Assembly: GCA_025964255.1 (NCBI GenBank)
Contig: JAOPZF010000102.1
Location: 1 to 43,300 of the forward strand
DNA from: Solirubrobacterales bacterium
GTDB taxonomy: Bacteria > Actinomycetota > Thermoleophilia > Solirubrobacterales > 70-9
Reading direction: 5' to 3'
DNA length: 43,300 bases
Numbering within the stretch: the stretch's first letter is position 1; each line of letters begins with the position of its first letter. Below, piece by piece: positions 4,275-37,275 of the stretch. A program made the position numbers and the translations under genes. The notes beneath the pieces were generated by a model. It worked only from the letters and a program-made list of their open reading frames with translations. It was not told where the DNA came from and searched no databases.

Positions 4275-5342
4275 ATGGCGACCGGCCGACTCTCGACCAC
4301 CGATCGTCTCCTGCCGCTCTGGATCGGAGTGGCGATGGGCGTCGGGCTCGGGCTCGGCGCGCTGATCCCCGGCCTCGAGAGCGGCGCGTTGTCGGCGGTC
4401 GCGATCGGCGGCACCTCACTGCCGATCGCGATCGGCCTGCTGCTGATGATGTATCCGGTGTTGGCCCGGGTCCGCTACGAGGAGCTCGGCCATCTGCGCG
4501 GCGAGCGCGGCCTCTTGGTCTCCTCGCTGGTCCTCAACTGGGTCATCGGCCCGGCGCTGATGTTCGCCCTCGCCTGGCTGATGCTCCCCCACGATCCCGA
4601 ATACCGGACCGGGCTGATCGTCGTCGGCCTCGCCCGTTGCATTGCGATGGTCCTTATATGGAGCGAGCTCGCCTGCGCCGACCGCGAGGCGACCGCCGTG
4701 CTGGTCGCGATCAACTCGATCTTCCAGATCGTTGCCTACTCCCTGCTCGGCTGGTTCTACCTCTCAGTCCTGCCGGGCTGGCTCGGCCTCGACACCGAAG
4801 GCTTCTCGGTCGGGATCTGGGAGGTGGCCCGCACCGTCCTGATCTTCCTCGGCATCCCGCTCGCGGCCGGGTACCTGACGAGGGTCGTCGGCCTGCGACG
4901 CAAGGGCCGGGACTGGTACGAACAGACCTTCCTGCCGCGGATCGCGCCGATCACCCTCTACGGCCTCCTCTTCACGATTGTCCTCCTCTTCGCCCTGCAA
5001 GGCCATCAGATCACCAGGCACCCGCTCGACGTGGTGCGGATCGCGCTGCCGCTGCTCGTCTACTTCGCGCTGATGTTCGGGATCGCCTTCGCCTGGGGGC
5101 GCGCGTCAGGCTACGGCTACCCCCGAACGGCGACCCTGGCGCTGACCGCCGCCTCGAACAACTTTGAGCTCGCGATCGCGGTGGCGATCGGCGTCTTCGG
5201 CGCGACCTCCGGCGAGGCGCTGGCCGGCGTCGTCGGGCCGTTGATCGAGGTCCCGGTCCTTGTAGGCCTCGTCTACGTCTCGCTGTGGCTGCGGGGACGA
5301 TGGTTCGGACCGTCGCCGGAGCCGTCGGGAGCGGCGGGCTGA
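4275..5342 (+). CDS. acr3: ACR3-family arsenite efflux permease
   Basis: 355 residues and about ten membrane helices, the normal size for Acr3 carriers of the bile/arsenite/riboflavin transporter superfamily. Hallmarks include 'MMYPVLARVRYEEL', 'VLNWVIGPALMFALAWL', the helix-4 motif 'GLARCIAMVLIW' with its conserved cysteine, and 'ASNNFELAIAVAIGVFG'. It exports arsenite from the cytoplasm using the proton motive force. It is translated from a leaderless start six bases after TAGGAT. Its TGA overlaps the ATG of arsC by one base, so the two are translationally coupled. Confidence 0.95.
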   Translation: MATGRLSTTDRLLPLWIGVAMGVGLGLGALIPGLESGALSAVAIGGTSLPIAIGLLLMMYPVLARVRYEELGHLRGERGLLVSSLVLNWVIGPALMFALAWLMLPHDPEYRTGLIVVGLARCIAMVLIWSELACADREATAVLVAINSIFQIVAYSLLGWFYLSVLPGWLGLDTEGFSVGIWEVARTVLIFLGIPLAAGYLTRVVGLRRKGRDWYEQTFLPRIAPITLYGLLFTIVLLFALQGHQITRHPLDVVRIALPLLVYFALMFGIAFAWGRASGYGYPRTATLALTAASNNFELAIAVAIGVFGATSGEALAGVVGPLIEVPVLVGLVYVSLWLRGRWFGPSPEPSGAAG

Positions 5343-5734
5343 TGGCCAACGCCCTCTTCGTCTGCCTCCATAACGCGGGTCGCTCGCAGATGAGTCAGGC
5401 GCTGTTCGAACGCGCCGCCGAGGGTCGCCACGACGCCCGCTCGGCGGGCACCACACCCGGCGATCACGTCCACCCGGAGGTCGTCGAGGTGATGCTCGAG
5501 GTCGGCATCGACCTGGCCGATCGCATCCCCCACGAGCTGACCGAAGACGACGCCCGTTGGGCCGACGTCGTGGTGACGATGGGCTGCGGCGACGAGTGTC
5601 CCTACATCCCGGGCCGCCGCTACGTCGATTGGGATCTGCCCGACCCGAAAGGCCGGCCGATCGAGGAGGTGCGCGCGACCCGCGACGAGATCGAGAGGCG
5701 GGTCGGCGAGCTGGTCGCGGAACTGAACGGCTGA
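5342..5734 (+). CDS. arsC: Arsenate reductase, low-molecular-weight phosphatase type
   Basis: 130 residues from the ATG that overlaps the acr3 stop; an upstream in-frame ATG at 5285 lies inside acr3 and would add a non-homologous arm. The P-loop C8-x5-R14 ('VCLHNAGRSQ') and the Asp loop 'DWDLPDPKG' identify the LMW-PTP fold. The 'MGCGDECP' cysteines are closer together than the Cys82/Cys89 redox pair of staphylococcal ArsC, which favours a mycothiol/mycoredoxin-linked mechanism as in corynebacteria; this is inference. It reduces arsenate to arsenite, the substrate of Acr3. Confidence 0.92.
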   Translation: MANALFVCLHNAGRSQMSQALFERAAEGRHDARSAGTTPGDHVHPEVVEVMLEVGIDLADRIPHELTEDDARWADVVVTMGCGDECPYIPGRRYVDWDLPDPKGRPIEEVRATRDEIERRVGELVAELNG

Positions 5735-5757
5735 GACGCCCGACAGCGCCTCAGCCG
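5728..5757. terminator. Hairpin between convergent arsC and molybdoenzyme genes
   Basis: A 12-bp stem (CGGCTGAGACGC with GCGCCTCAGCCG, one mismatch) and a six-base loop lie exactly across the junction of two convergent genes. Both stop codons are inside the stem. There is no U-tract on either side, as is usual in high-GC actinobacteria. A bidirectional terminator is the simplest reading. Confidence 0.6.
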
Positions 5758-7094
5758 ACCTGCACCGGGTGGCGGACGACCGCCCAAAAGAGGTAACCGT
5801 TTTTGTTGAACGGAACGGTTTCGGGCTGCCTCTGGCCGGTCTGGTCGGTGGCGCGTGCCCGCAGCTGGTAGCTACCGGGGCCCGGCGGGGTCCAGTCGAA
5901 GCTCCAACGCACCCACGCCTGGGGGACGTTGGGTGACTGCAGCTTGGCCGGATGCCAGCCTTCGGGCGTGGGCCCTGAGGGTCCGCTCCGGGACGGATTC
6001 CCGCCGGCTCCCGTCGGCACCGCGGCATACGCCGGACCGACGGACGTGGAGACGGCCTCCGGGTAGATCTCGACCCGCTTGATCGTCCCGCTGCCCGACC
6101 AGGATCGGCCGTGCAGCCGGATCGTCTTCCCGGCGGGCAGGGCGGCGGGCATCGGCAGCTCGAAGGCGCTCTTCACCGCCTGCTTGGTCAGCGCCGGCGA
6201 GTCGGCGGGGTATTCCGAGCCGATCATGCGGTACTGGGTGGTGTTCCAGGGCGAGTAGAGAGGAACGTCGGCGACTTCGATCTGGCCGAGCCACTTGGTG
6301 CTCGCGACGCCGACCCAGCCGGGGACGACCAGCCGCAGCGGACGGCCGTGGTCCGGGGGCAGGGGTTCGCCGTTCATCCCGTAGGCGAGGAGCGCGTCGT
6401 CGAGAGCCTTCGCGACCGAGAGGGGACGGCGGACGTGCCCTTCGTTGACGCCGTTCGTGATCACTTCCGAGTCGAGTCCCTGCGGCATGACGTCGACGGC
6501 GCTCGACTTGATCCCGGCCCTTTCGAGGACCTCGCGCAGAGGGACGCCGTGCCACTGCGCGACCCCGACCGCGCCGAGCTTCCAGGCCGAGCCGGGCGCC
6601 GGGGTCCGCTGCTGGGAGCCGAAGAAGCTGCGGCCGTTTCCGGCGCACTCCATGAACGCCGTCCGGGTTTCGGAAGGCATCTTGCGCAGCTCGCTCAGGG
6701 TGAAGGAGCGTCCGTTCGGATCCTTCAGCCCGCTGCCGAACACGTTCAGCCGATACCTCAGCGGGTCGATCGCCTCGGTCGCGGTGTGGTTGCGGACGAA
6801 GAACTTCTCGACCGGCGTCAGGTAGCCCTCGTCGGCCATCGCCGGCCATTTCATTTCGGCGTTGGTCCCCAGCCGTTCGAACCATTCTTCGGGCAGCTTC
6901 TTGACTATCCCCTGCGGCACCGGAAAGGCGGGTGCCCTGGTCGTACGGAGAAAGCCGCCGCCGGCGAGCATCAAGGAGCCCGCGGCCCCGAGCTTCAGGA
7001 GCTGCCGTCGTGAGAGACCGTGCTCGCGCTGGAGCTTGCGATCGAGCTGCTCATCGCGGGTGTCGAAGTACTCGGCTTCATCGGTAAGTGCCAC
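5751..7094 (-). CDS. TAT-exported sulfite-oxidase-like molybdopterin oxidoreductase
   Basis: The GTG at 7094 was chosen because AAGGAGG stands five bases before it; 447 residues. A twin-arginine signal 'SRRQLLKLG' and hydrophobic stretch (about residues 28-50) are followed by the oxidoreductase molybdopterin domain, with the Mo-ligating cysteine in 'FMECAGNGR' (C150) and 'GRPLRLVVPGWVGVASTKWL'. A C-terminal Mo-co dimerisation domain follows ('IRLHGRSWSGSGTIKRVEI', 'WVRWSFDWTPPGPG'). It should act outside the membrane. The divergent TSUP exporter suggests a sulfite/sulfonate role. No haem domain is visible, so the electron acceptor is unknown. Confidence 0.9.
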   Translation of the reverse strand: MALTDEAEYFDTRDEQLDRKLQREHGLSRRQLLKLGAAGSLMLAGGGFLRTTRAPAFPVPQGIVKKLPEEWFERLGTNAEMKWPAMADEGYLTPVEKFFVRNHTATEAIDPLRYRLNVFGSGLKDPNGRSFTLSELRKMPSETRTAFMECAGNGRSFFGSQQRTPAPGSAWKLGAVGVAQWHGVPLREVLERAGIKSSAVDVMPQGLDSEVITNGVNEGHVRRPLSVAKALDDALLAYGMNGEPLPPDHGRPLRLVVPGWVGVASTKWLGQIEVADVPLYSPWNTTQYRMIGSEYPADSPALTKQAVKSAFELPMPAALPAGKTIRLHGRSWSGSGTIKRVEIYPEAVSTSVGPAYAAVPTGAGGNPSRSGPSGPTPEGWHPAKLQSPNVPQAWVRWSFDWTPPGPGSYQLRARATDQTGQRQPETVPFNKNGYLFWAVVRHPVQVG

Positions 7095-26461: not shown

Positions 26462-28183
26462 TCATTGGACCAACGCCGGCCGTTCCTCGCATCGCAGGCG
26501 CCACAGCTCGGGCGGCGCACCCGCCTCGGGGCGGGGGCGGAACGATGGGTAGGCGGGGCGCGGTGGGGCTTCGATTCGGCGCTCGACCGCGACCATCACC
26601 TCTCCTGCCATCGCGCTGAGGGCGCGGAGGCTCTGGTGGCGGTTCTGGCGGGTGCCGAGGTCGACCTCGGCGAGGGCGTCGAGGCCGACGAAGCGGAGGG
26701 CGTCGATCATCATCGCGATCTCGACCCCGTAGCCGACCGGGACCGAGAGGCGCTCGAAGAGGTCGCGGCGGATCGCGATCTCGCCCGAGAGTGGCTGGGT
26801 GAAGCCGGAGAGCGAGGGGAAGTGGAGGTTCAGCAGCGGCCGGGCGACCAGCTCGGTCACCCTCCCCCCTTCGCCTTCCTGGGTCGAGTCGCCGAGCGCG
26901 AAGGGGCGACGGAAGGTGCCCTTGACCAGGGCGAGGCTCGGGTCGAGGACCATCGGTCCGAGCAGGCCGGTGACGAAGCCGGGGTCGAAGTCGATGGTGT
27001 CGGCGTCGAGGAAGACGAGCAGCTCGGCGCTCGTCGCCGCGGCGGCCCGCCACATCGCGTCGCCCTTGCCGCGAGCGCGCCCGAGCTCCGGGCGGATCGA
27101 CGACTCCGAGAGGACGCGAGCTCCGTGCTCGCGGGCGACCGCTGCGGTGCCGTCGGGCGAATCGGCGTCGACGACGAGGAGCTCGTCGAGCAGCCCGGCT
27201 CCCCGGAGCGGCGCGATCGCCTCGAGGATCGGGCCGATCGTCGCCGCGCATTCGCTGGTCGGGAGGATCACCGCGACGGTCCTCGTCTTCGCCGCGAGCA
27301 GCTCGGGCAGGCTGAAGTCGCGACCGTCGTAGCGGCGCTCGCCGAGCCAGCGCGCCAACTCCAGGTCGCGGGCGAGGCCCCGCTCGGCCCGTCCCTCGGT
27401 GCGCGCCGCGGTGACGACCGAGACCGGGCGCAGGCGATGGATTGCGATCCCGGCCGCGGCGAGCCGGTCCTCCAGCTCCTGGTCCTCGAGCGCCGCCATC
27501 CAGGCCATCCCGCCGGCCTGCCGGTAGGCCCGCGGGGTGACGCCGAGGCTGGCGCCGGAGAAGTGGGCGTGTTCGGCGGGGCCGCGGGCGGCCGCCTCGG
27601 CGGTGCGCACGGCAAGGTCGGCCTCGCGCCGGGCGAGGACACCGTCGGGAAGAGCCGCCGCTTCGTCGGGGTCGAGGCGGATCTCGCCGCCGATCGCCTC
27701 GGCGCCGCCCTCGATCGCCTCCAGCTGGCGGGCGATCCAATCCGGCGCGACGCGCGAATCGGCGTCGGTCGAGGCGAGCAGGCCACCCGCGCGTCCCAAC
27801 GATTCGAGGCGAGCGCAGCCGACGTCCATCCCGGTCGCGCGAGCCGGCCCGGCGCCCTGGCCGGGCCCGTCGATGACGTGGATGACCGGCCCGCCCAGGC
27901 GCGGCGAACCGACGCCCGACACCGGGTCGCCCGGGACCTCGTCGCTCGCCGGATCATCGATCCGACGTCGCGCGGCCTCGACCTCCGCCGCGGTCCCGTC
28001 TTCGCAGGAGTCGAGGACGACGACGACCTCGAAGCCCTCCAGCGCGACCTCAACCTGGCCGGCGAGCGCGTCGAGGCAACGACCGATCCACAGCTCCTCG
28101 TCCCGGGCGGGGACGACGACCACGGCGCGCACCGTCGCGGCGGGCGGCGGCAGGGCACGGCGGGCGGCGGCGCTCAGCTCCAC
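26462..28183 (-). CDS. Two-domain glycosyltransferase: GT2 fused to GpgS-type (GT81) domain
   Basis: 573 residues from GTG 28183, which has GAGGAAC at good spacing; a longer frame would run antisense through the upstream gene. Residues 18-285 form a GT2 domain ('AVVVVPARDEELWIGRCLDA', 'STDADSRVAPDWI'). Residues 300-540 match glucosyl-3-phosphoglycerate synthase: 'GRARGKGDAMWRAA', 'FLDADT' (metal site, 391-396), 'GRVTELVARPLL', 'QPLSGEIAIRRDLF', 'GYGVEIAMMIDALRFVGLDA'. GpgS joins UDP-glucose to 3-phosphoglycerate. The N-terminal half could add a second sugar or bind an acceptor. It is the last gene of a five-gene overlapping operon. The GpgS half is confident; its exact substrate is not. Confidence 0.87.
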   Translation of the reverse strand: MELSAAARRALPPPAATVRAVVVVPARDEELWIGRCLDALAGQVEVALEGFEVVVVLDSCEDGTAAEVEAARRRIDDPASDEVPGDPVSGVGSPRLGGPVIHVIDGPGQGAGPARATGMDVGCARLESLGRAGGLLASTDADSRVAPDWIARQLEAIEGGAEAIGGEIRLDPDEAAALPDGVLARREADLAVRTAEAAARGPAEHAHFSGASLGVTPRAYRQAGGMAWMAALEDQELEDRLAAAGIAIHRLRPVSVVTAARTEGRAERGLARDLELARWLGERRYDGRDFSLPELLAAKTRTVAVILPTSECAATIGPILEAIAPLRGAGLLDELLVVDADSPDGTAAVAREHGARVLSESSIRPELGRARGKGDAMWRAAAATSAELLVFLDADTIDFDPGFVTGLLGPMVLDPSLALVKGTFRRPFALGDSTQEGEGGRVTELVARPLLNLHFPSLSGFTQPLSGEIAIRRDLFERLSVPVGYGVEIAMMIDALRFVGLDALAEVDLGTRQNRHQSLRALSAMAGEVMVAVERRIEAPPRPAYPSFRPRPEAGAPPELWRLRCEERPALVQ

Positions 28184-29346
28184 TTCGCCCGTTCCTCGAT
28201 CAGCTCGCGGCCGCGTTCGTAGGCGGTGTCCTCGCGGTGGGTCGCGACCCCGACGATCTCGCCGCCCCGCCCGTACCAGCAGGCCCAGGCGCCATCGTCG
28301 CCGGATTCGAAGCGCGAGTCCTCCCAGCCGTCGCCCCAGCCGACGTACTTGATCGTGCGCTCGCCGATCGTCGACCAGAAGCCGGGCGCGACGCTCCACT
28401 CGGCCGCGACGCCGGCCATCGTCTTCCCCGCGACCTCGCCCATGTTCAGCGCCTCGCCCCAGTGTTCGACCCGAAGTCGGCGGCCGGCCGCGGTGTTGAA
28501 GGCAAAGGCGACGTCGCCGGCGGCGAGCACGCGAGGATCGGCGGTCGCCATCGAGGCGTCGACCTGGACGCCGTCTTCGACCGCGAATCCCGCCGCGGCG
28601 GCGAGGCCGTCGTTGCGCTCGACGCCGAGCGCGAGGAGGACGCGGTCGACGACGACCTCGTGGCGATCGGTGAAGCGGGCGCGGGTGGCGCGGTCGCCCC
28701 CCGGACGGAGCTCCGCCAGCTCGGCTTCGGCGAGTAGCTCGACGCCGAGCGATTCCAGCCAACTCGTGATCTCCGCCGCAACCTCGGGGCCGAGGCGTTC
28801 GATCTGCGGCGCGGCCTCCAGCGTCGCCATCGTCACCGCGACACCGCGCATCGCCAGTGAGGCGGCAGCCTCACAGCCGATGAAGCCCGAGCCTGCGACG
28901 ACGGCGCTGTCGCCGCGGCCGAGCTGCCCGAGGCGCTCGGAGTCGCCGATCCGGCGCACGGTCTGGACTCCGGGTCCGTCGGCCCCGGGGATCGGCGGGA
29001 CCAGCGGGTCGGCGCCGGTCGCGAGCAGGAGCCGGTCGAACGGATGCTCCTCACCCTCCACGGTGCGAGCGACGGTCGCGCCGAGATCGATCGCCGCCAC
29101 CTCCGCCCCTGTCACCAGCTCGATCCCGTGCTCCTTGTACCAACCGGGATCGGCGAGCGGCAGCTCGTCCCGGCCCGACTCGCCGCGCAGGAAGTCCTTG
29201 GTCAGCGGCGGCCGTTCGTAGGGCGGGTCGGCCTCGCGGGCGAGGATCGTCACCGCGCCGGAGCCGCCAGCCTCGCGGTACGCCTCGGCCGCCGCTTTCG
29301 CCGCCGGTCCGCCGCCGACGATCACGATCCGCTCCGCCCCGCTCAT
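28174..29346 (-). CDS. Ferredoxin-reductase-like NAD(P)H/FAD oxidoreductase
   Basis: 390 residues from ATG 29346, which overlaps the preceding stop as ATGA. Two dinucleotide folds are present: FAD 'IVIVGGGPAAKAAAEAYREAG' (a GxGxxA variant, shortened here at the ends) and NAD(P) 'SAVVAGSGFIGCEAAASLA'. 'YERPPLTKDFLRGE' and 'VLAAGDVAFAF' are typical of rubredoxin/ferredoxin reductases that feed electrons to oxygenases or other redox proteins. No ferredoxin or oxygenase gene is adjacent, so the acyl-CoA-dehydrogenase-like protein of the same operon is a candidate partner. It overlaps the glycosyltransferase start by ten bases. Confidence 0.9.
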   Translation of the reverse strand: MSGAERIVIVGGGPAAKAAAEAYREAGGSGAVTILAREADPPYERPPLTKDFLRGESGRDELPLADPGWYKEHGIELVTGAEVAAIDLGATVARTVEGEEHPFDRLLLATGADPLVPPIPGADGPGVQTVRRIGDSERLGQLGRGDSAVVAGSGFIGCEAAASLAMRGVAVTMATLEAAPQIERLGPEVAAEITSWLESLGVELLAEAELAELRPGGDRATRARFTDRHEVVVDRVLLALGVERNDGLAAAAGFAVEDGVQVDASMATADPRVLAAGDVAFAFNTAAGRRLRVEHWGEALNMGEVAGKTMAGVAAEWSVAPGFWSTIGERTIKYVGWGDGWEDSRFESGDDGAWACWYGRGGEIVGVATHREDTAYERGRELIEERAKWS

Positions 29347-29966
29347 CGCCGGCACCAGCGGTCGAGCAGGTAGTCGGACTCCGTGTGGCTCGCGTCTAGG
29401 ACGAGCGAGGTGCGTTCGTCGAGGATCCGGTGGACGTCGTTCCCGGTCAGCTCGCGGCGCGGATCGGGGTGGCGCCAGTGGACGGCGAGCAGCGTGCCGC
29501 CCGGGGCGAGCGCCGCCTCGATCCGGCGGATGCCGTCGGCGAGGAGCTCGGCGCTCCAGTAATAGAGGACCTCGGCGCAGACGATCGTGTCGAAAGGGCC
29601 CCCGGGGGTGCCCTCGGGGAGCTTTCGCTCGAGCAGCTCGACGTTGGTCGCCCCTGCCTCGTCCAACCGCTCGCGGGCGCGCGCGAGCGCGGTCGGGCTG
29701 AAGTCGACGGCCGTGAGGTGGGACGCGCGCGGGGCCAGCATCGCGGTGAAGACGCCGACCGAGCAGCCGAGCTCCAGCGTGCGGCCGGTCTCCGCGGGCA
29801 GGTAGGAGAGCGTGCGCCGGTACTTCGCCTGCTCGTACTCACTGGTCGCGTAGTCCCAGGGGTCGGCCGCTTCGCGCGCGAGCCGCTCGAAGTGCTCGAC
29901 TGGGGCGCGGTCGCGAGCTTCGCTCGCGTCGCGGTGGCGGCGCTGGTCGCGGGCGGCCATCGTCAT
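29343..29966 (-). CDS. NodS-like SAM-dependent methyltransferase
   Basis: 207 residues. The N-terminal 'DPWDYATSEYEQAKYRRTLS' and motif I 'TLELGCSVGVFTAML' are those of the NodS family, as is the 'VCAEVLYYW' strand. NodS of rhizobia N-methylates the amino sugar freed by the NodB deacetylase. A NodB-like deacetylase is the first gene of this operon, so an amino-sugar N-methylation is a reasonable hypothesis; the substrate cannot be read from the sequence. Both ends overlap neighbours by four bases (ATGA), giving translational coupling. An alternative is O-methylation of a sugar, as in methylglucose polymers. Confidence 0.87.
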   Translation of the reverse strand: MTMAARDQRRHRDASEARDRAPVEHFERLAREAADPWDYATSEYEQAKYRRTLSYLPAETGRTLELGCSVGVFTAMLAPRASHLTAVDFSPTALARARERLDEAGATNVELLERKLPEGTPGGPFDTIVCAEVLYYWSAELLADGIRRIEAALAPGGTLLAVHWRHPDPRRELTGNDVHRILDERTSLVLDASHTESDYLLDRWCRR

Positions 29967-31075
29967 CGCCTCGCCAATCCTTCGGCGCCCAACTTCGCCA
30001 CGAGCGGATCGAGGCGATGCTGGAGCAAGAACGTCTCGAGATCACGCCGGGCGCGGTCGAGCCGACCGCCGGTGACGAACGGATGCGACCCGCATGCCGC
30101 AGCCGCCTCGCCGAGCACGAGTTTCGCCGCCCGATCGATCTCGGCGCGCATCGCGATCGAGGTCGCCCGCGGCCAGCGTCTGCGCTTGTTCCCGCTATCC
30201 GGGTCCAATTGCAGACCGTCCGGGTCGGGAGCGTCGGCGACGGCCGCCGCGCGATCGAGCCAGGCGTCGACGGTGCCCCGCGCGGCCTCGATCCGACCCG
30301 CCGCCAACTGCGCGAGCGGCTCGTCGGCGCGGCGGGCGGCGAGTTCGTCGAGGGCGGCGTCGACCGCCGCGTCGACCATCCCCGCCCAGGTCGCGGCGGT
30401 GCGCATCGCGTCGCGGGAGAACCACGGATCGCGGGCGAGCTCGCCGGGGCCGCCGAGGACCGCGGTGACGGGGGTGTCGTGGAAGACGACGCGGTGGCTC
30501 TCCGAGGCGCCCAGGCCGGCGGCGCGGTACCAGCCGCGGTCGACCTCGACCTCGGCGCCGCAGTCGAGCAGGACCAGCGCCGGCGGCTCGCCCTCGTCGT
30601 TGCCGACCATCACCATCGCCGCGTCGACCCCGCCGGCGCCCGAGCAGAACGTCTTGACGCCACGCAGGACGAGACGGGCGCCGGTCTCGGCCAGCCGCGC
30701 CGGATCGCCCTCGCCGGGTCCCGGATCCGCTCCCCACACCCCGAGCAGCCGGTCCCCCGCCGCGACGGCGGCGAGTTCGCGCTCGCGCAGATCCGGCTCG
30801 GCGGCGACTTCGAGCCGCTCGACCGCATTCAGGTGGCCGTCGAGGACGCGCGCGACCGATGCGTCGGCGGCGGCGACCCGGCGCAGCAGGTCCCACTCGG
30901 CACGCACCGAGCGTTCCTCGCGGACGGCGCCGATCGTCATCGACAGGGCGCCCGCGTCGGCGAGCTCGAAGAAGGCCTCGCGGGGGAAGCGCGGCACCCG
31001 GTCGAGCTCCGCCGCCTCGGCGGCGATCCGAGCGAGCGCCTCGTCGAGCCGCGCCGTGGCCGGAGCGTCAATCAC
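29963..31075 (-). CDS. Acyl-CoA-dehydrogenase-like flavoprotein
   Basis: 370 residues with the fold of acyl-CoA dehydrogenases: a helical N-terminal domain ('FPREAFFELADAGALSMTIG'), the beta domain with 'LVLRGVKTFCSGAGGVDAAM' and 'GLGASESHRVVFHDTPV', and a helical C-terminal domain ending 'RDLETFLLQHRLDPLVAK'. The 'DxETFxLxHxxD' end is distinctive of a subgroup found in sugar-modification clusters rather than in fatty-acid oxidation. I cannot place the catalytic base. It may oxidise an amine, alcohol or acyl group on the glycoside made here. It is overlapped by four bases on each side. Confidence 0.82.
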   Translation of the reverse strand: MIDAPATARLDEALARIAAEAAELDRVPRFPREAFFELADAGALSMTIGAVREERSVRAEWDLLRRVAAADASVARVLDGHLNAVERLEVAAEPDLRERELAAVAAGDRLLGVWGADPGPGEGDPARLAETGARLVLRGVKTFCSGAGGVDAAMVMVGNDEGEPPALVLLDCGAEVEVDRGWYRAAGLGASESHRVVFHDTPVTAVLGGPGELARDPWFSRDAMRTAATWAGMVDAAVDAALDELAARRADEPLAQLAAGRIEAARGTVDAWLDRAAAVADAPDPDGLQLDPDSGNKRRRWPRATSIAMRAEIDRAAKLVLGEAAAACGSHPFVTGGRLDRARRDLETFLLQHRLDPLVAKLGAEGLARR

Positions 31076-31674
31076 GCCAGCACGCCCTCGCAGGCCGACA
31101 CCGTCGCCGGCTCCAGCCCGTCCACCTCCGCCTCCGCGAGCAGCAGCTCGGTCAGGGCGACGGTCTCGGCGCAGGCCTCCCGCAGCGCGCCGGGGCCGAG
31201 CGCGTCGTGCATCAAGATCACGTCGCCGTCACGCAGGCCACCCTGCGCCTCGAGCGCGCCGAACATCCGCCGCACGTCGTCGCCACGCCAGTCGTGGGTG
31301 TCGACGTTCCAACCCCAGAGCCGTAGGCCGTATTCCGCCGCGAGGCTCCGGGTAGCGTCGGTCTCGATCCCCCACGGCGCCCGCCAGGCGTGCGGCCGCA
31401 CGCCGATCCCGTCGAGCATCTCGAGGCCGATCTCAACGTCCGCGGCGACCTCGTCCGGCTCGCGCTCGGAGTGCCGCACGTGGTCGACGCAGTGGAAGCC
31501 GATCTCGTTCCCGCCGGCGATCGCGGCCTCGATCAAGTCGCGATGCTCGACCGCCCGGCGCGCCTGGACGAAGAAGGTCGCGTGCGCGCCTCGCCGCTCG
31601 AGCGCGGCAAGGATGCGGAGGGTCCAGCCCGGGTCGGGGCCGTCGTCGAAGGTGAGGGCGATCTTTCCTGTCAC
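31072..31674 (-). CDS. NodB-like polysaccharide deacetylase (CE4)
   Basis: 200 residues from GTG 31674; a frame to 31725 adds a non-homologous arm. All NodB motifs are visible: 'LTFDDGPDP' (catalytic base and metal Asp), 'GFHCVDH' (H-x3-H metal site), 'RAPWG', 'WNVDTHDW' and 'ILMHD'. There is no signal peptide or membrane helix, so it should work in the cytoplasm on a small or lipid-linked N-acetylated sugar rather than on cell-wall polymer. It is the first gene of the operon that continues through the flavoprotein, methyltransferase, reductase and glycosyltransferase. Confidence 0.9.
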   Translation of the reverse strand: MTGKIALTFDDGPDPGWTLRILAALERRGAHATFFVQARRAVEHRDLIEAAIAGGNEIGFHCVDHVRHSEREPDEVAADVEIGLEMLDGIGVRPHAWRAPWGIETDATRSLAAEYGLRLWGWNVDTHDWRGDDVRRMFGALEAQGGLRDGDVILMHDALGPGALREACAETVALTELLLAEAEVDGLEPATVSACEGVLA

Positions 31675-31748
31675 GCCGGAGAGGTACCCGCCGGGCCGGC
31701 GATTCTCACCGCCGGCGCGACACATGCGCCGAGGACTCCACCGGCGAC

Positions 31749-32462
31749 CTACTGGTCGAGGTTTTCCCGACGCGGCGGCCGCCCGCCCTCGGGATGCTCC
31801 GGATCGTTCTCGAGCGGCGGTTCGCTGGTGCTCTCCGCGCCCGTCGCCGGATGCGGCTCCTCGCCGAAAGGGGCGCCGTCGGGATCGGCCGGGTCGCGAG
31901 GGTCCGGCCGCGTCTCGAAGGGGTCCGGGTACTCCGTCTCATCCGGCTCGCCGACCGGGTTGTTGAGCGCCTGATGCGGACCTTTGTCGTGCGAGCGGTT
32001 CCCGGGTTCGCTGTCGGGTTTCGATTTCTCGGCAGCGGGTTTCGGTTTCGGCGCCGCTTTCGGTTTCGCCGGTTTGCCGTCGTCCGCTTTCGGTTTCGCC
32101 GGTTTGGCTTTGGCGGTGTCCGGTTTCGGCGCCAGTTTCGGTTTCGGCGCCGGTTTCGGTTTCGCCGCGGCTTTTGGTTTCGGTTTGGCCGCTTTGGGTT
32201 TGGCGGGTTTCGGTTTCGGCGGCGCTTTCTCTTTCGCGATCGGGACGACCTTGGCGTCCGCTTCGGCGCCGGTCAGGTCGGCAGCGCCAGACGCGCGGCT
32301 GTCCTTCGCCCCGTCATCCTCCCCGCCATGCCCGAGCACCCGCTTGGCGACCATGCCACCAACCGCGAGCGCCGCGCCCGCCCCAGCCGCGGCGACCACC
32401 CGCGCCCGTTTCGTCATTCTGCCGATCAGGCTCTTTCCGGGAATGTCAGGGAGGTTCGGCAC
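31749..32462 (-). CDS. Lys/Pro/Ala-rich membrane-anchored protein
   Basis: 237 residues. One hydrophobic helix (about 22-43, 'ARVVAAAGAGAALAVGGMVA') follows a basic N terminus. Residues 75-150 are a PKPA/KPK low-complexity stretch like histone H1 tails, which could bind DNA or acidic polymers. The C-terminal 80 residues are acidic and proline-rich, with 'GPHQALNNPVGEPDETEYPD', a motif I have seen in other actinobacterial proteins of this design. No enzyme domain is present. The plus-strand frames over it are repeat artefacts. The function is unknown; the basic-then-acidic layout is striking. Confidence 0.75.
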   Translation of the reverse strand: MPNLPDIPGKSLIGRMTKRARVVAAAGAGAALAVGGMVAKRVLGHGGEDDGAKDSRASGAADLTGAEADAKVVPIAKEKAPPKPKPAKPKAAKPKPKAAAKPKPAPKPKLAPKPDTAKAKPAKPKADDGKPAKPKAAPKPKPAAEKSKPDSEPGNRSHDKGPHQALNNPVGEPDETEYPDPFETRPDPRDPADPDGAPFGEEPHPATGAESTSEPPLENDPEHPEGGRPPRRENLDQ

Positions 32463-35200: not shown

Positions 35201-35238
35201 GGCTTGATCGGCGGCGCGGCGGGGGTCAGGCTCAGGTG

Positions 35239-37275
35239 ATGGCCGGGCTCGGCGACTACGAACGCAAGCGGGACTTCGGCAAGACCGCCGAGCCCGCGCC
35301 GCGCAAGAAGGGGGCGAAGGGGCGCAAAGGTGCGCCCCGCTTCGTCGTCCAGGAACACAGCGCCACCCGCCTGCACTGGGACCTGCGGCTCGAGCACGAC
35401 GGCGTCGGCGTCTCCTGGGCGGTGCCGAACGGGATCCCGCAGGACCCGGCCGAAAACCGCAAAGCCGTCCACACCGAGGACCACCCGCTCGACTACTTCA
35501 GCTTCGAAGGCGAGATCCCGAAGGGCTCCTACGGCGCCGGGACGATGCGGATCTGGGACCAGGGCACTTACGAGGTCGAGAAGTGGCGCGACGACGAGGT
35601 CATCTTCGCCTTCGACGGTGAGCGGCTGCACGGGCGCTACGCGCTCTTCCGCGCGGGCGGGCCGAAGGACTGGATGATCCACCGGATCGACCCGCCTGAA
35701 GGCGAGCGCGATCCCTTCCCGGAGCCGCTGCCGCCGATGCTGGCCAACGACGGCGAGCTACCGCGTTCGACCCGCGGCTGGGCGGCGGAGCTCGCCTGGG
35801 GCGGCGTGCGCGCGATCGCCCGCTGCCGGCCCGGGCGGATCGAGCTGCGCGACGCCGAGCTCGAGGACATCGGGGCCCGCTGGCCCGAGGTCCATCGCCT
35901 CAGCCGCCAGATCGGCGCCCACGACGCGGTCCTCGACGGCGAGCTGGTCGTCTTCGACGCCGACGGGCGACCCGACCAGGAGCGGCTCGCGCGCCGCGAC
36001 AAAGGCGGCTCCGACAGCGCCGTGAGGCGGCGCGCCCGCGAGTACCCGGCGACCTACGTGATCTTCGACCTCCTCTTCCTCGACGGCGAGGACCTCACCG
36101 GCGCTCCTTATAAGGAGCGGCGCGAGCTGCTCGCCGGCCTCGAACTGGAGGGGGACGCGTGGCGGGTCCCGGCGAACGCGACGACGAAGTTCAAGGAGCT
36201 GCTCGCCGCGAGCGCCGGCCAGGGCGTCGAGGGGCTGGTGCTGAAGAAGCAGTCGAGCGCCTACGCGCCGGGGCGGCGTACGGGAGACTGGTTGCTCGTG
36301 CACGCCGACGGCGAGAAGAGGGACGCGAGCGCATCGCTCACCACGAACGCCGAGCCGACGGCGAAGAACAAATACCGCCTCCAGGTCGGCGAGCGCGAGC
36401 TGGCCGTCTCCAACCTCGACAAGGTCCTCTACCCCGCCACCGGCTTCACCAAGGGCGACCTGATCGACGCCTACGCCGACCTCGCCGAGGTCCTCCTCCC
36501 CCACCTCCGCGGCCGCCCGGTGACGCTGAAGCGCTACCCCGACGGGGTCGAGGGGAAATTTTTCTATGAGAAGCGCAGCCCGAAACATCGGCCCGACTGG
36601 GTGCCGACGGCGCGGATCTGGTCCGACAGCCACGGCGGCGAGATCGACTACACCCTGATCGAGGACCTGCCGACCCTCGTCTGGTCCGCCAACCTGGCGA
36701 ACATCGAGCTGCACACGGCGCTGGCCCGGGCCGACGACCAGGACCATCCCGAGTCGCTCGTATTCGACCTCGACCCCGGCGCCCCCGCAGACGTCCTCGA
36801 CTGCGCCGACGTCGCGCTGCGGATCCGCGCGCTCTTCACCCAGCTCGGGCTCGACTGCTACCCGAAGACCTCCGGCTCGAAGGGCATCCACCTGCACGTG
36901 CCGCTGAACGGCACCGCGACCTTCACCGAGTCGCGCCCCTTCGCCAAAGCGCTAGCCGAGACCTTCGAGGCGCGCTTCCCCGACGAGGTGATCTCACGGC
37001 AGACGAGGTCCAAACGGGAGGGCAAGGTGCTGATCGACTGGAGCCAGAACGACCCGCACAAGACGACCGCCTCGGTCTACAGCGTGCGCGCCCGCGAACG
37101 GCCGACGGCCTCGACGCCGGTCGAATGGGAGGAGCTCGAAGCGGCGGTCGAGGCGAAGGACGCAGGCGCCCTCGACTTCACCGTCGACGACCTGCGCGCC
37201 CGCGTCGTCGCCAAAGGCGACCTCTACGCGCCACTCCTCACCCAACGCCAGGAGCTCCCCGACCTCGCAGGCTAG
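35239..37275 (+). CDS. ligD: LigD-type NHEJ protein with degenerate ligase domain
   Basis: 678 residues in the order phosphoesterase (about 1-150, 'HSATRLHWDLRLEHDG'), ligase-like domain (about 165-360) and primase-polymerase (about 375-670, with 'VFDLDPG' metal Asps and 'TSGSKGIHLHVPL'). The ligase part is broken at the active site: the nucleophile motif KxDG reads A186-W-G-G, and motif V 'DWLKxK' reads 'DWLLVH' (350-355). Motif IV is kept ('EGLVLKK'). The OB fold that normally follows is missing; a 30-residue linker leads straight to the polymerase. It should process DNA ends but not seal them. No ku gene is in the window. Confidence 0.93.
   Translation: MAGLGDYERKRDFGKTAEPAPRKKGAKGRKGAPRFVVQEHSATRLHWDLRLEHDGVGVSWAVPNGIPQDPAENRKAVHTEDHPLDYFSFEGEIPKGSYGAGTMRIWDQGTYEVEKWRDDEVIFAFDGERLHGRYALFRAGGPKDWMIHRIDPPEGERDPFPEPLPPMLANDGELPRSTRGWAAELAWGGVRAIARCRPGRIELRDAELEDIGARWPEVHRLSRQIGAHDAVLDGELVVFDADGRPDQERLARRDKGGSDSAVRRRAREYPATYVIFDLLFLDGEDLTGAPYKERRELLAGLELEGDAWRVPANATTKFKELLAASAGQGVEGLVLKKQSSAYAPGRRTGDWLLVHADGEKRDASASLTTNAEPTAKNKYRLQVGERELAVSNLDKVLYPATGFTKGDLIDAYADLAEVLLPHLRGRPVTLKRYPDGVEGKFFYEKRSPKHRPDWVPTARIWSDSHGGEIDYTLIEDLPTLVWSANLANIELHTALARADDQDHPESLVFDLDPGAPADVLDCADVALRIRALFTQLGLDCYPKTSGSKGIHLHVPLNGTATFTESRPFAKALAETFEARFPDEVISRQTRSKREGKVLIDWSQNDPHKTTASVYSVRARERPTASTPVEWEELEAAVEAKDAGALDFTVDDLRARVVAKGDLYAPLLTQRQELPDLAG

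What the first reader, a model, noticed from the sequence alone, without database searches (positions are those of the whole stretch)
26462..31674. Five-gene overlapping operon: NodB-like + ACAD-like + NodS-like + ferredoxin-reductase-like + GT2-GpgS fusion
Seen: every junction overlaps (4, 4, 4 and 10 bp), so the five genes are made as one unit. Known: NodB deacetylates and NodS N-methylates amino sugars next to a GT2 synthase in rhizobial Nod-factor synthesis; GpgS joins glucose to 3-phosphoglycerate. Inferred: an actinobacterial pathway that builds a glycoside (perhaps glucosylglycerate-based), deacetylates it, methylates the amine or a hydroxyl, and oxidises it with a flavoprotein fed by a reductase. 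The cytoplasmic deacetylase argues for a small or lipid-linked substrate. I know of no described pathway with this exact set.
Basis: partly seen in the sequence, partly recalled or inferred. Interest (0 to 1): 0.85.

Follow-up and report, generated by a model that had tools for sequence, protein, structure and literature searches.

The report
Conserved amino-sugar tailoring gene cassette
Five overlapping bacterial genes form a conserved, unnamed set that probably builds and modifies a small amino-sugar compound inside the cell, and a related set with a different type of deacetylase occurs in several other phyla.

Summary
The five genes and their 4, 4, 4 and 10 bp overlaps are real. In 33 related loci of Thermoleophilia and Rubrobacter the NodB-like gene, methyltransferase and GT2 each lie by the ACAD-like gene in 32; the reductase is in the run in 19. 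The ACAD tree splits the two types at one branch (100/99). Two unrelated de-N-acetylases in one role point to an N-acetyl-sugar substrate. The "ACAD" lacks the MCAD-type catalytic glutamate and is closest to flavin monooxygenases, sugar nitrososynthases among them, so oxidation of the sugar amine is my favoured, inferred step. The GpgS half is a true GpgS/MpgS by score and residues, yet not core: in Rubrobacter-clade loci it is decayed or lost, and most such genomes searched have an intact stand-alone GpgS. Seven literature searches aimed at the cassette found nothing on it. Product and function are unknown.

The parts
31072..31674 (-). NodB-like polysaccharide (de-N-acetyl) deacetylase, 200 aa, no strongly hydrophobic stretch; GTG start (alternative ATG at 31725)
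   Evidence: PF01522 81 bits; TFDDGP, HxxxH, RxPWG, DxxDW and LxHD motifs; max 19-residue hydropathy 0.94
29963..31075 (-). ACAD-fold protein, group-D flavin-monooxygenase-like, 370 aa
   Evidence: below Pfam ACAD cut-offs; PDB profile hits DszC, MsuC, KijD3, ORF36 nitrososynthase; model pLDDT 87.1, Foldseek TdsC/DszC/MsuC/DnmZ/ORF36/KijD3; MCAD catalytic Glu column is His353
29343..29966 (-). NodS-type class I SAM methyltransferase, 207 aa
   Evidence: PF05401 74.6 bits; profile of 12 orthologues: PDB best 4isc 1.2e-53, NodS 3ofj 4.6e-30, phosphoethanolamine N-methyltransferase 5wp5 6.8e-20
28174..29346 (-). ferredoxin-NAD(P) reductase-like flavoprotein, 390 aa (optional member of the cassette)
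   Evidence: Pyr_redox_2 169.7 bits; NCBIfam HcaD/AndAa 189/188 bits, below their cut-offs; in the gene run of 19 of 33 related loci
27326..28183 (-). N-terminal GT2 (GT-A) half of the fusion, no membrane segment; TDADS motif and LED motif
   Evidence: alignment of 30; model pLDDT 91.7; Foldseek best WrtF, TM about 0.55
26465..27355 (-). C-terminal GpgS/MpgS half of the fusion
   Evidence: NF010496 342.8 bits over residues 277-572; Rubrobacter xylanophilus MpgS 3f1y best PDB hit; K373, D393, D395, G440, R441, T443, E488, H516 kept in all 22 distinct fused relatives outside the Rubrobacter clade

Best explanation
The operon is the Thermoleophilia/Rubrobacter form of a widespread, unnamed cassette that makes a small, soluble, N-modified amino-sugar glycoside. 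Shown: the linked gene set, the one-branch split between NodB and PIG-L types, retained catalytic motifs of both deacetylases, a monooxygenase-like ACAD fold without the MCAD-type base, and an intact but non-core GpgS half. Inferred: the GT2 half moves an N-acetyl-hexosamine from a nucleotide sugar onto a small acceptor; NodB (elsewhere PIG-L) removes the acetyl group; the NodS-type enzyme N-methylates the freed amine; the ACAD-fold flavoprotein oxygenates it (hydroxylamine, nitrone or nitroso level), fed in some lineages by the reductase. Where the GpgS half is intact it makes a (glucosyl or mannosyl)-3-phosphoglycerate, which may be the acceptor or a co-regulated solute.
For: Linkage in 32 of 33 loci and in varied gene orders elsewhere: all four functions in 13 of 15 other actinobacterial loci opened (of 24 such hits), in 11 of 18 cyanobacterial/Bacteroidota/Verrucomicrobiota loci (4 of the other 7 end at a contig or locus edge), and in 3 of 6 plasmid loci opened. 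No locus holds both deacetylases among those searched with both. ACAD tree of 75 rows separates the types at one branch, 100/99, in all of 200 bootstrap trees. Deacetylase motifs kept in 31-32 of 33 NodB rows and 17 of 18 PIG-L rows. GT2 is fused to GpgS in 21 of 33 loci and to the methyltransferase in two loci of one Patulibacter MAG. NodS is the closest characterised relative of the methyltransferase, N-methyltransferases next. ACAD: best by profile DszC/MsuC/KijD3/ORF36; MCAD-Glu column H, P or A in all 57 cassette members; Ser145, aligned with DszC Ser163 by my count, invariant in 57 of 57. Highest 19-residue hydropathy of the five proteins 1.58, no membrane segment.
Against: No substrate, donor or product was tested. 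Foldseek also ranks isovaleryl-CoA dehydrogenases close (TM about 0.8), so the fold alone does not choose between oxygenase and dehydrogenase. Of the DszC residues recalled as catalytic, His92 aligns with Arg76 and the His391 region is uncertain. The GT2 half has no close solved relative (TM about 0.55), so HexNAc as donor has no structural support. The reductase is not in the run of 14 of 33 loci. One locus (L052) has no NodB or PIG-L hit; one PIG-L-type locus (L211) has no PIG-L hit. The GpgS pattern in Rubrobacter is not perfect: G515 has a decayed fused half and a stand-alone copy with a stop inside.
Confidence: 0.5

Rival explanations
1. The operon makes a glucosylglycerate- or mannosylglycerate-type compatible solute that the other enzymes decorate; GpgS is the heart of the pathway.
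For: GpgS half intact at all eight active-site positions in 22 of 22 distinct fused copies outside the Rubrobacter clade; GpgS linked in a second arrangement, upstream of NodB, in L072, L074, L075, L079 (L074 and L079 from one MAG); all 13 NodB-cassette genomes of the class sample have a GpgS against 76 of 286 others.
Against: PIG-L cassettes show no GpgS beside them (one weak hit, L086); of 14 such genomes inspected 3 have none at E 1e-30, and 6 of 23 if the nine uninspected hits are counted in. Fused half decayed in 7 and absent in 2 of 9 readable distinct Rubrobacter-clade loci. In 10 of the 13 class genomes the GpgS counted is the fused copy itself, and relatedness was not corrected for. 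Four of the 13 (G073, G109, G122, G160) have a stand-alone copy besides the intact fused one.
Confidence: 0.25
2. The genes modify an envelope glycan or a lipid-linked sugar, in the manner of peptidoglycan or Nod-factor deacetylation.
For: NodB, NodS and a GT2 are part of the Nod-factor set (recalled); best named PDB relatives of the deacetylase are peptidoglycan and chitin deacetylases.
Against: No membrane segment by hydropathy in any of the five (no signal-peptide program was run); the GT2 half lacks the membrane part of NodC (recalled comparison). Neighbouring genes were not annotated well enough to exclude a transporter.
Confidence: 0.12
3. The ACAD-like protein is a real acyl-CoA dehydrogenase and the cassette adds or alters an acyl chain on a glycolipid.
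For: ACAD fold; isovaleryl-CoA dehydrogenases among the Foldseek hits; annotated as acyl-CoA dehydrogenase in public plasmid records.
Against: MCAD-type glutamate column is H, P or A in all 57 cassette members; against a recalled isovaleryl-CoA dehydrogenase motif, not from a call, the other known base position would be Met224; no thioesterase, ligase or acyl carrier among the five genes.
Confidence: 0.1

Closest known systems
Rhizobial Nod-factor genes nodB, nodC, nodS
   Same: Polysaccharide deacetylase, GT2 and NodS-type methyltransferase in one operon; NodS is the closest characterised relative of the methyltransferase
   Different: No NodA-like gene among the five; GT2 half without membrane part; flavin-oxygenase-like protein, reductase and GpgS half added; NodB and NodS scores are far below the NCBIfam equivalog cut-offs
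ACAD / PIG-L / NodS-type methyltransferase / GT2 cassette of other Actinobacteria, Proteobacteria, Cyanobacteria and Bacteroidota (unnamed; found here)
   Same: Same four functions; related ACAD-like, methyltransferase and GT2 genes
   Different: PIG-L instead of NodB; no reductase or GpgS of this kind seen beside it, save one weak GpgS hit (L086); gene order varies. Deinococcus radiodurans has ACAD, PIG-L and a methyltransferase, no GT2 annotated within 7 kb
GpgS/MpgS, e.g. Rubrobacter xylanophilus MpgS 3f1y, mycobacterial GpgS
   Same: C-terminal half is a member by score and active-site residues
   Different: Fused behind another GT2 half; in Rubrobacter-clade cassettes the fused half is decayed or absent
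Sugar nitrososynthases KijD3, ORF36, DnmZ and DszC/TdsC/MsuC monooxygenases
   Same: ACAD fold, near full-length profile match to KijD3 and ORF36
   Different: 17-24% identity in Foldseek alignments; partner reductase, where present, is ferredoxin-reductase-like rather than a free-flavin reductase (recalled for DszC)
Mycothiol and bacillithiol pathways (recalled)
   Same: Glycosyltransferase then PIG-L de-N-acetylation of a GlcNAc linked to a small polar acceptor
   Different: No cysteine ligase among the five; methyltransferase and flavoprotein instead

Membership tests
GpgS/MpgS (glucosyl/mannosyl-3-phosphoglycerate synthase) | Score above the curated NCBIfam cut-off | tested here: met
   NF010496 342.8 against 262 bits
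GpgS/MpgS (glucosyl/mannosyl-3-phosphoglycerate synthase) | Lys114-Asp134-Glu232 network, Asp136 metal ligand, Thr187 acceptor contact (M. tuberculosis numbering, passages of PMC2581804) | tested here: met
   Window K373, D393, E488, D395, T443 by my reading of the alignment
GpgS/MpgS (glucosyl/mannosyl-3-phosphoglycerate synthase) | Activity with nucleotide sugar and 3-phosphoglycerate | not testable with these tools
   needs an assay
NodB chitooligosaccharide deacetylase | Score above the NodB equivalog cut-off | tested here: not met
   TIGR04243 98.8 against 240 bits
Polysaccharide deacetylase PF01522 | Family score and catalytic motifs | tested here: met
   81 bits, cut-off 23.1; motifs kept
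NodS | Score above the NodS equivalog cut-off | tested here: not met
   NF041650 77.4 against 300 bits; Pfam PF05401 74.6 against 24 bits is met
Acyl-CoA dehydrogenase | Pfam ACAD domain scores | tested here: not met
   PF02771 18.3 against 22.9; PF02770 17.8 against 33.3
Acyl-CoA dehydrogenase | MCAD-type catalytic glutamate | tested here: not met
   column is His353 here, H/P/A across 57 cassette members
Group-D flavin monooxygenase / sugar nitrososynthase | Closest by profile and fold | tested here: met
   DszC, MsuC, KijD3, TdsC, ORF36 best by profile; TdsC and DszC first by Foldseek
Group-D flavin monooxygenase / sugar nitrososynthase | DszC catalytic residues Ser163, His92, His391 (recalled) | tested here: inconclusive
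   Ser kept (S145), His92 aligned with Arg76, His391 region holds Q352-H353 but the alignment there is uncertain
Group-D flavin monooxygenase / sugar nitrososynthase | O2-dependent oxidation with reduced flavin | not testable with these tools
   needs an assay
Nod-factor pathway | nodA, nodB, nodC together | tested here: not met
   no acyltransferase among the five genes; the rest of the genome was not searched for nodA or nodC

The most novel reading that the evidence does not exclude
A phylum-spanning, undescribed biosynthetic cassette makes an intracellular N-methylated, N-oxygenated amino-sugar glycoside (a redox-active or protective metabolite) in Rubrobacter, Thermoleophilia, other Actinobacteria, cyanobacteria, Bacteroidota and Proteobacteria; in Thermoleophilia it is built on a glycosyl-glycerate core by a two-headed GT2-GpgS enzyme.
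Probability: 0.2. Interest if true: 0.85.

Novelty: new variant of a known kind. Interest (0 to 1): 0.62.

Why it matters
A conserved gene set of this breadth with no product assigned may hide a metabolite that many bacteria share. The natural exchange of two unrelated de-N-acetylases gives a sharp, testable clue to the substrate. The GT2-GpgS fusion, and its decay in the Rubrobacter clade where a stand-alone GpgS usually exists, offers a second lever on how the pathway is supplied.

Tried and rejected
Acyl-CoA dehydrogenase function for the ACAD-like gene: not favoured, on the missing MCAD-type glutamate. Of the three comparison proteins there, L017 and L020 show the GEGT motif with the glutamate and L030 does not; they were judged by motif and not scanned for families.

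Stress-gene neighbourhood: LigD lies in the window (35236-37275), Ku/LigD beside the Bradyrhizobium cassette, a catalase beside the Sulfitobacter one, a manganese-catalase-like gene near L045 and L041, but across 60 cassette-type loci these genes hit only 1 to 2 loci each, so no enrichment is claimed; 28 control loci, on half the bases, gave none.

A GT2-ACAD fusion in Deinococcus radiodurans, which I assumed from gene length and wrote into notes, proved wrong: the N-terminal part, about 410 residues, matches none of the cassette GT2s at 1e-3 and no Pfam family at 1e-3. GpgS as a required partner: not upheld for PIG-L cassettes (11 of 14 inspected genomes have one, 17 of 23 with uninspected hits; all genomes of the sample 202 of 396; G306, whose locus holds the ACAD alone, left out). 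Recurrent extra neighbours: the gene picking was noisy and its families were not annotated, so nothing is concluded.

Literature: ten searches, seven of them aimed at the cassette; only listings were seen, save passages of PMC2581804. Micromonosporaceae loci L099-L126 hold only a distant ACAD and were left out of the cassette counts; L127 matched over 26 residues and was left out too. Row drops: one search used 57 cassette ACADs (37 NodB type, 20 PIG-L type) plus L044; the tree left out L044 and L222. Loci known to be one genome fetched twice: L032/L065, L033/L059, L035/L064, L036/L063, L040/L077, L041/L076; L056/L221 have zero branch length between them. The 33-locus counts use L048-L080 only.
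Full report
Observation. The open point is the NodB start: GTG 31674 or ATG 31725. Pfam and NCBIfam place four of the five firmly; the ACAD-like gene stays below the Pfam cut-offs. The window belongs to a 4.0 Mb draft genome in which this is the only match for the ACAD-like protein at E 0.001; the fusion protein has one other match there, weak, over 107 residues.

Linkage in relatives. In 299 genomes of the same class, the own one included, 13 have an ACAD match at E 1e-30 or better; then come two near 1e-19 (L044 and L045, both beside a PIG-L gene), and the rest at 5e-10 or worse. NodB was found by the ACAD gene in all 12 of the other 13. The genome-contig scan gave 80 loci. In L048-L080 (33 loci), NodB is found in 32, methyltransferase in 32, GT2 in 32 and the reductase inside the run in 19. 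GpgS sequence lies in the run in 25: 21 fused to the GT2, four of these decayed, and 4 as a separate gene just upstream of NodB; 8 show none. Of those 8, L055 and L059 stop at a contig end and L057 has a broken frame. Junction overlaps of 4 bp recur.

A wider cassette. Loci from Cyanobacteria, Bacteroidota and Verrucomicrobiota (L081-L098) carry ACAD-like, PIG-L, NodS-type methyltransferase and a GT2; all four in 11 of 18. Of 87 plasmid records with an ACAD match I opened six: Bradyrhizobium, Komagataeibacter and Sulfitobacter carry the four side by side; Deinococcus radiodurans has ACAD, PIG-L and, behind a helicase gene, a methyltransferase, no GT2 annotated within 7 kb; Methylobacterium has the ACAD alone; the Nostoc record is not annotated. 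In 15 loci from other actinobacterial families, of 24 such hits, 13 have all four in several gene orders. Pfam confirms PIG-L, NodS and GT2 in the members sampled. No locus holds both NodB and PIG-L. A tree of 75 ACAD-like proteins puts all 41 NodB-type on one side of one branch and all 34 PIG-L-type on the other, 100/99 support and all 200 bootstrap trees; two PIG-L rows (L133, L215) are long-branched. Rubrobacter copies are nested among Thermoleophilia copies, which suggests transfer to Rubrobacter (inference).

Deacetylase. Both types keep their catalytic motifs: the five NodB motifs in 31 or 32 of 33 rows each, misses falling in L048 and L065, which are truncated, and in L049 and L051; the PIG-L motif HPDDE in 17 of 18. 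PIG-L and CE4 enzymes share one well-known activity, removal of acetyl groups from N-acetylglucosamine units (recalled). Their exchange in one slot is the best clue to the substrate.

ACAD-like protein. The profile search against solved structures ranks DszC, MsuC, KijD3, TdsC and the ORF36 nitrososynthase above acyl-CoA dehydrogenases. The model (pLDDT 87.1) matches TdsC, DszC, MsuC, DnmZ, ORF36 and KijD3 but also isovaleryl-CoA dehydrogenases. Aligned with two class relatives that bear the GEGT glutamate motif, the MCAD-type glutamate column is H in 38, P in 18, A in 1 and D in 1 of 58; the D is L044, outside the cassette family. Residues invariant in 57 of 57: R76, G80, H81, V113, W114, G139, S145, G146, P217, R310, G329, Q352. 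KijD3, ORF36 and DnmZ oxidise amino groups of sugars (recalled), which fits a deacetylase and an N-methyltransferase next door.

Methyltransferase. Beyond an unnamed structure (4isc), rhizobial NodS is the best solved match, then phosphoethanolamine N-methyltransferases. A DPW..S.YE..K motif is nearly invariant near the N-terminus.

Glycosyltransferase. The GT2 half has no membrane segment, a TDAD motif and an invariant ED pair, and only loose fold matches, TM about 0.55. The ED pair is typical of inverting GT2 enzymes (recalled). In two loci of one Patulibacter MAG the methyltransferase and GT2 are one protein. Donor and acceptor are unknown.

GpgS half. It is a GpgS/MpgS by score and residues, closest to Rubrobacter xylanophilus MpgS among solved structures. 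Eight active-site positions are intact in all 22 distinct fused copies outside the Rubrobacter clade (26 loci, four of them duplicates). In the Rubrobacter clade, of 9 readable distinct loci 7 have 5 to 8 of these positions changed and 2 lack the half. Of 11 genomes of that family searched (of 25 with a cassette hit), 10 have a stand-alone GpgS with all eight positions intact; the eleventh, G515, has one with a stop inside. Both states were seen in the same genome in four (G337, G348, G399, G418); G515 goes against a neat hand-over. In the class sample all 13 cassette genomes have GpgS against 76 of 286 others (Fisher p 7.5e-8, relatedness not corrected, 10 of the 13 being the fused copy); four of the 13 have a second, stand-alone copy. 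In the Rubrobacter family GpgS is commoner than the cassette in the sample, so co-occurrence there says little. Among PIG-L-type genomes 11 of 14 inspected have GpgS. So GpgS is coupled in Thermoleophilia but is not part of the common core.

Mechanism. Best reading: GT2 builds a HexNAc glycoside, the deacetylase frees the amine, the NodS-type enzyme methylates it and the flavoprotein oxygenates it. Gene content, exchange, motifs and fold are shown; each chemical step is inferred. I put 0.5 on the general scheme and less on N-oxygenation by itself.

Comparison and novelty. It works like a soluble, miniature Nod-factor or bacillithiol logic, but the NodB and NodS equivalog tests fail and no NodA-like gene is among the five, so it is not filed as either. 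Seven searches of open PMC text aimed at the cassette found no paper on it; subscription papers and preprints were not searched.

Noticed in passing
L128 5750-8089 (Deinococcus radiodurans plasmid): The ACAD-like domain is fused behind about 410 residues that match no Pfam family at 1e-3 and read like a glycoside-hydrolase barrel (my impression).
   Followed up: partly
L039 8695-10209, and the gaps in L068 and L069: In L039 an opposite-strand gene of 504 aa (looks like an M28 peptidase, not tested) sits between ACAD and methyltransferase; L068 and L069 have gaps of about 1.5 kb at the same place.
   Followed up: no
window 35236-37275: LigD with phosphoesterase, ligase and polymerase domains about 3.5 kb from the operon; Ku and LigD also adjoin the Bradyrhizobium cassette, but no enrichment was seen.
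   Followed up: partly
L044 1883-5959: A second kind of ACAD plus PIG-L neighbourhood with genes that look like an acetyltransferase and a GT4 enzyme (not tested), without a NodS-type hit.
   Followed up: no
window 31749-32462: Lysine-proline-alanine-rich protein directly upstream of NodB on the same strand, no Pfam match.
   Followed up: no
L081, L082, L085, L089, L090, L094 around 5000-6900: A gene that looks like an alpha-amylase (not tested) lies upstream of the PIG-L cassette in six cyanobacterial loci.
   Followed up: no
genome G515, contig C1 982092-982833: The stand-alone GpgS has an in-frame TAG, in the one Rubrobacter-family genome of eleven without an uninterrupted copy.
   Followed up: no
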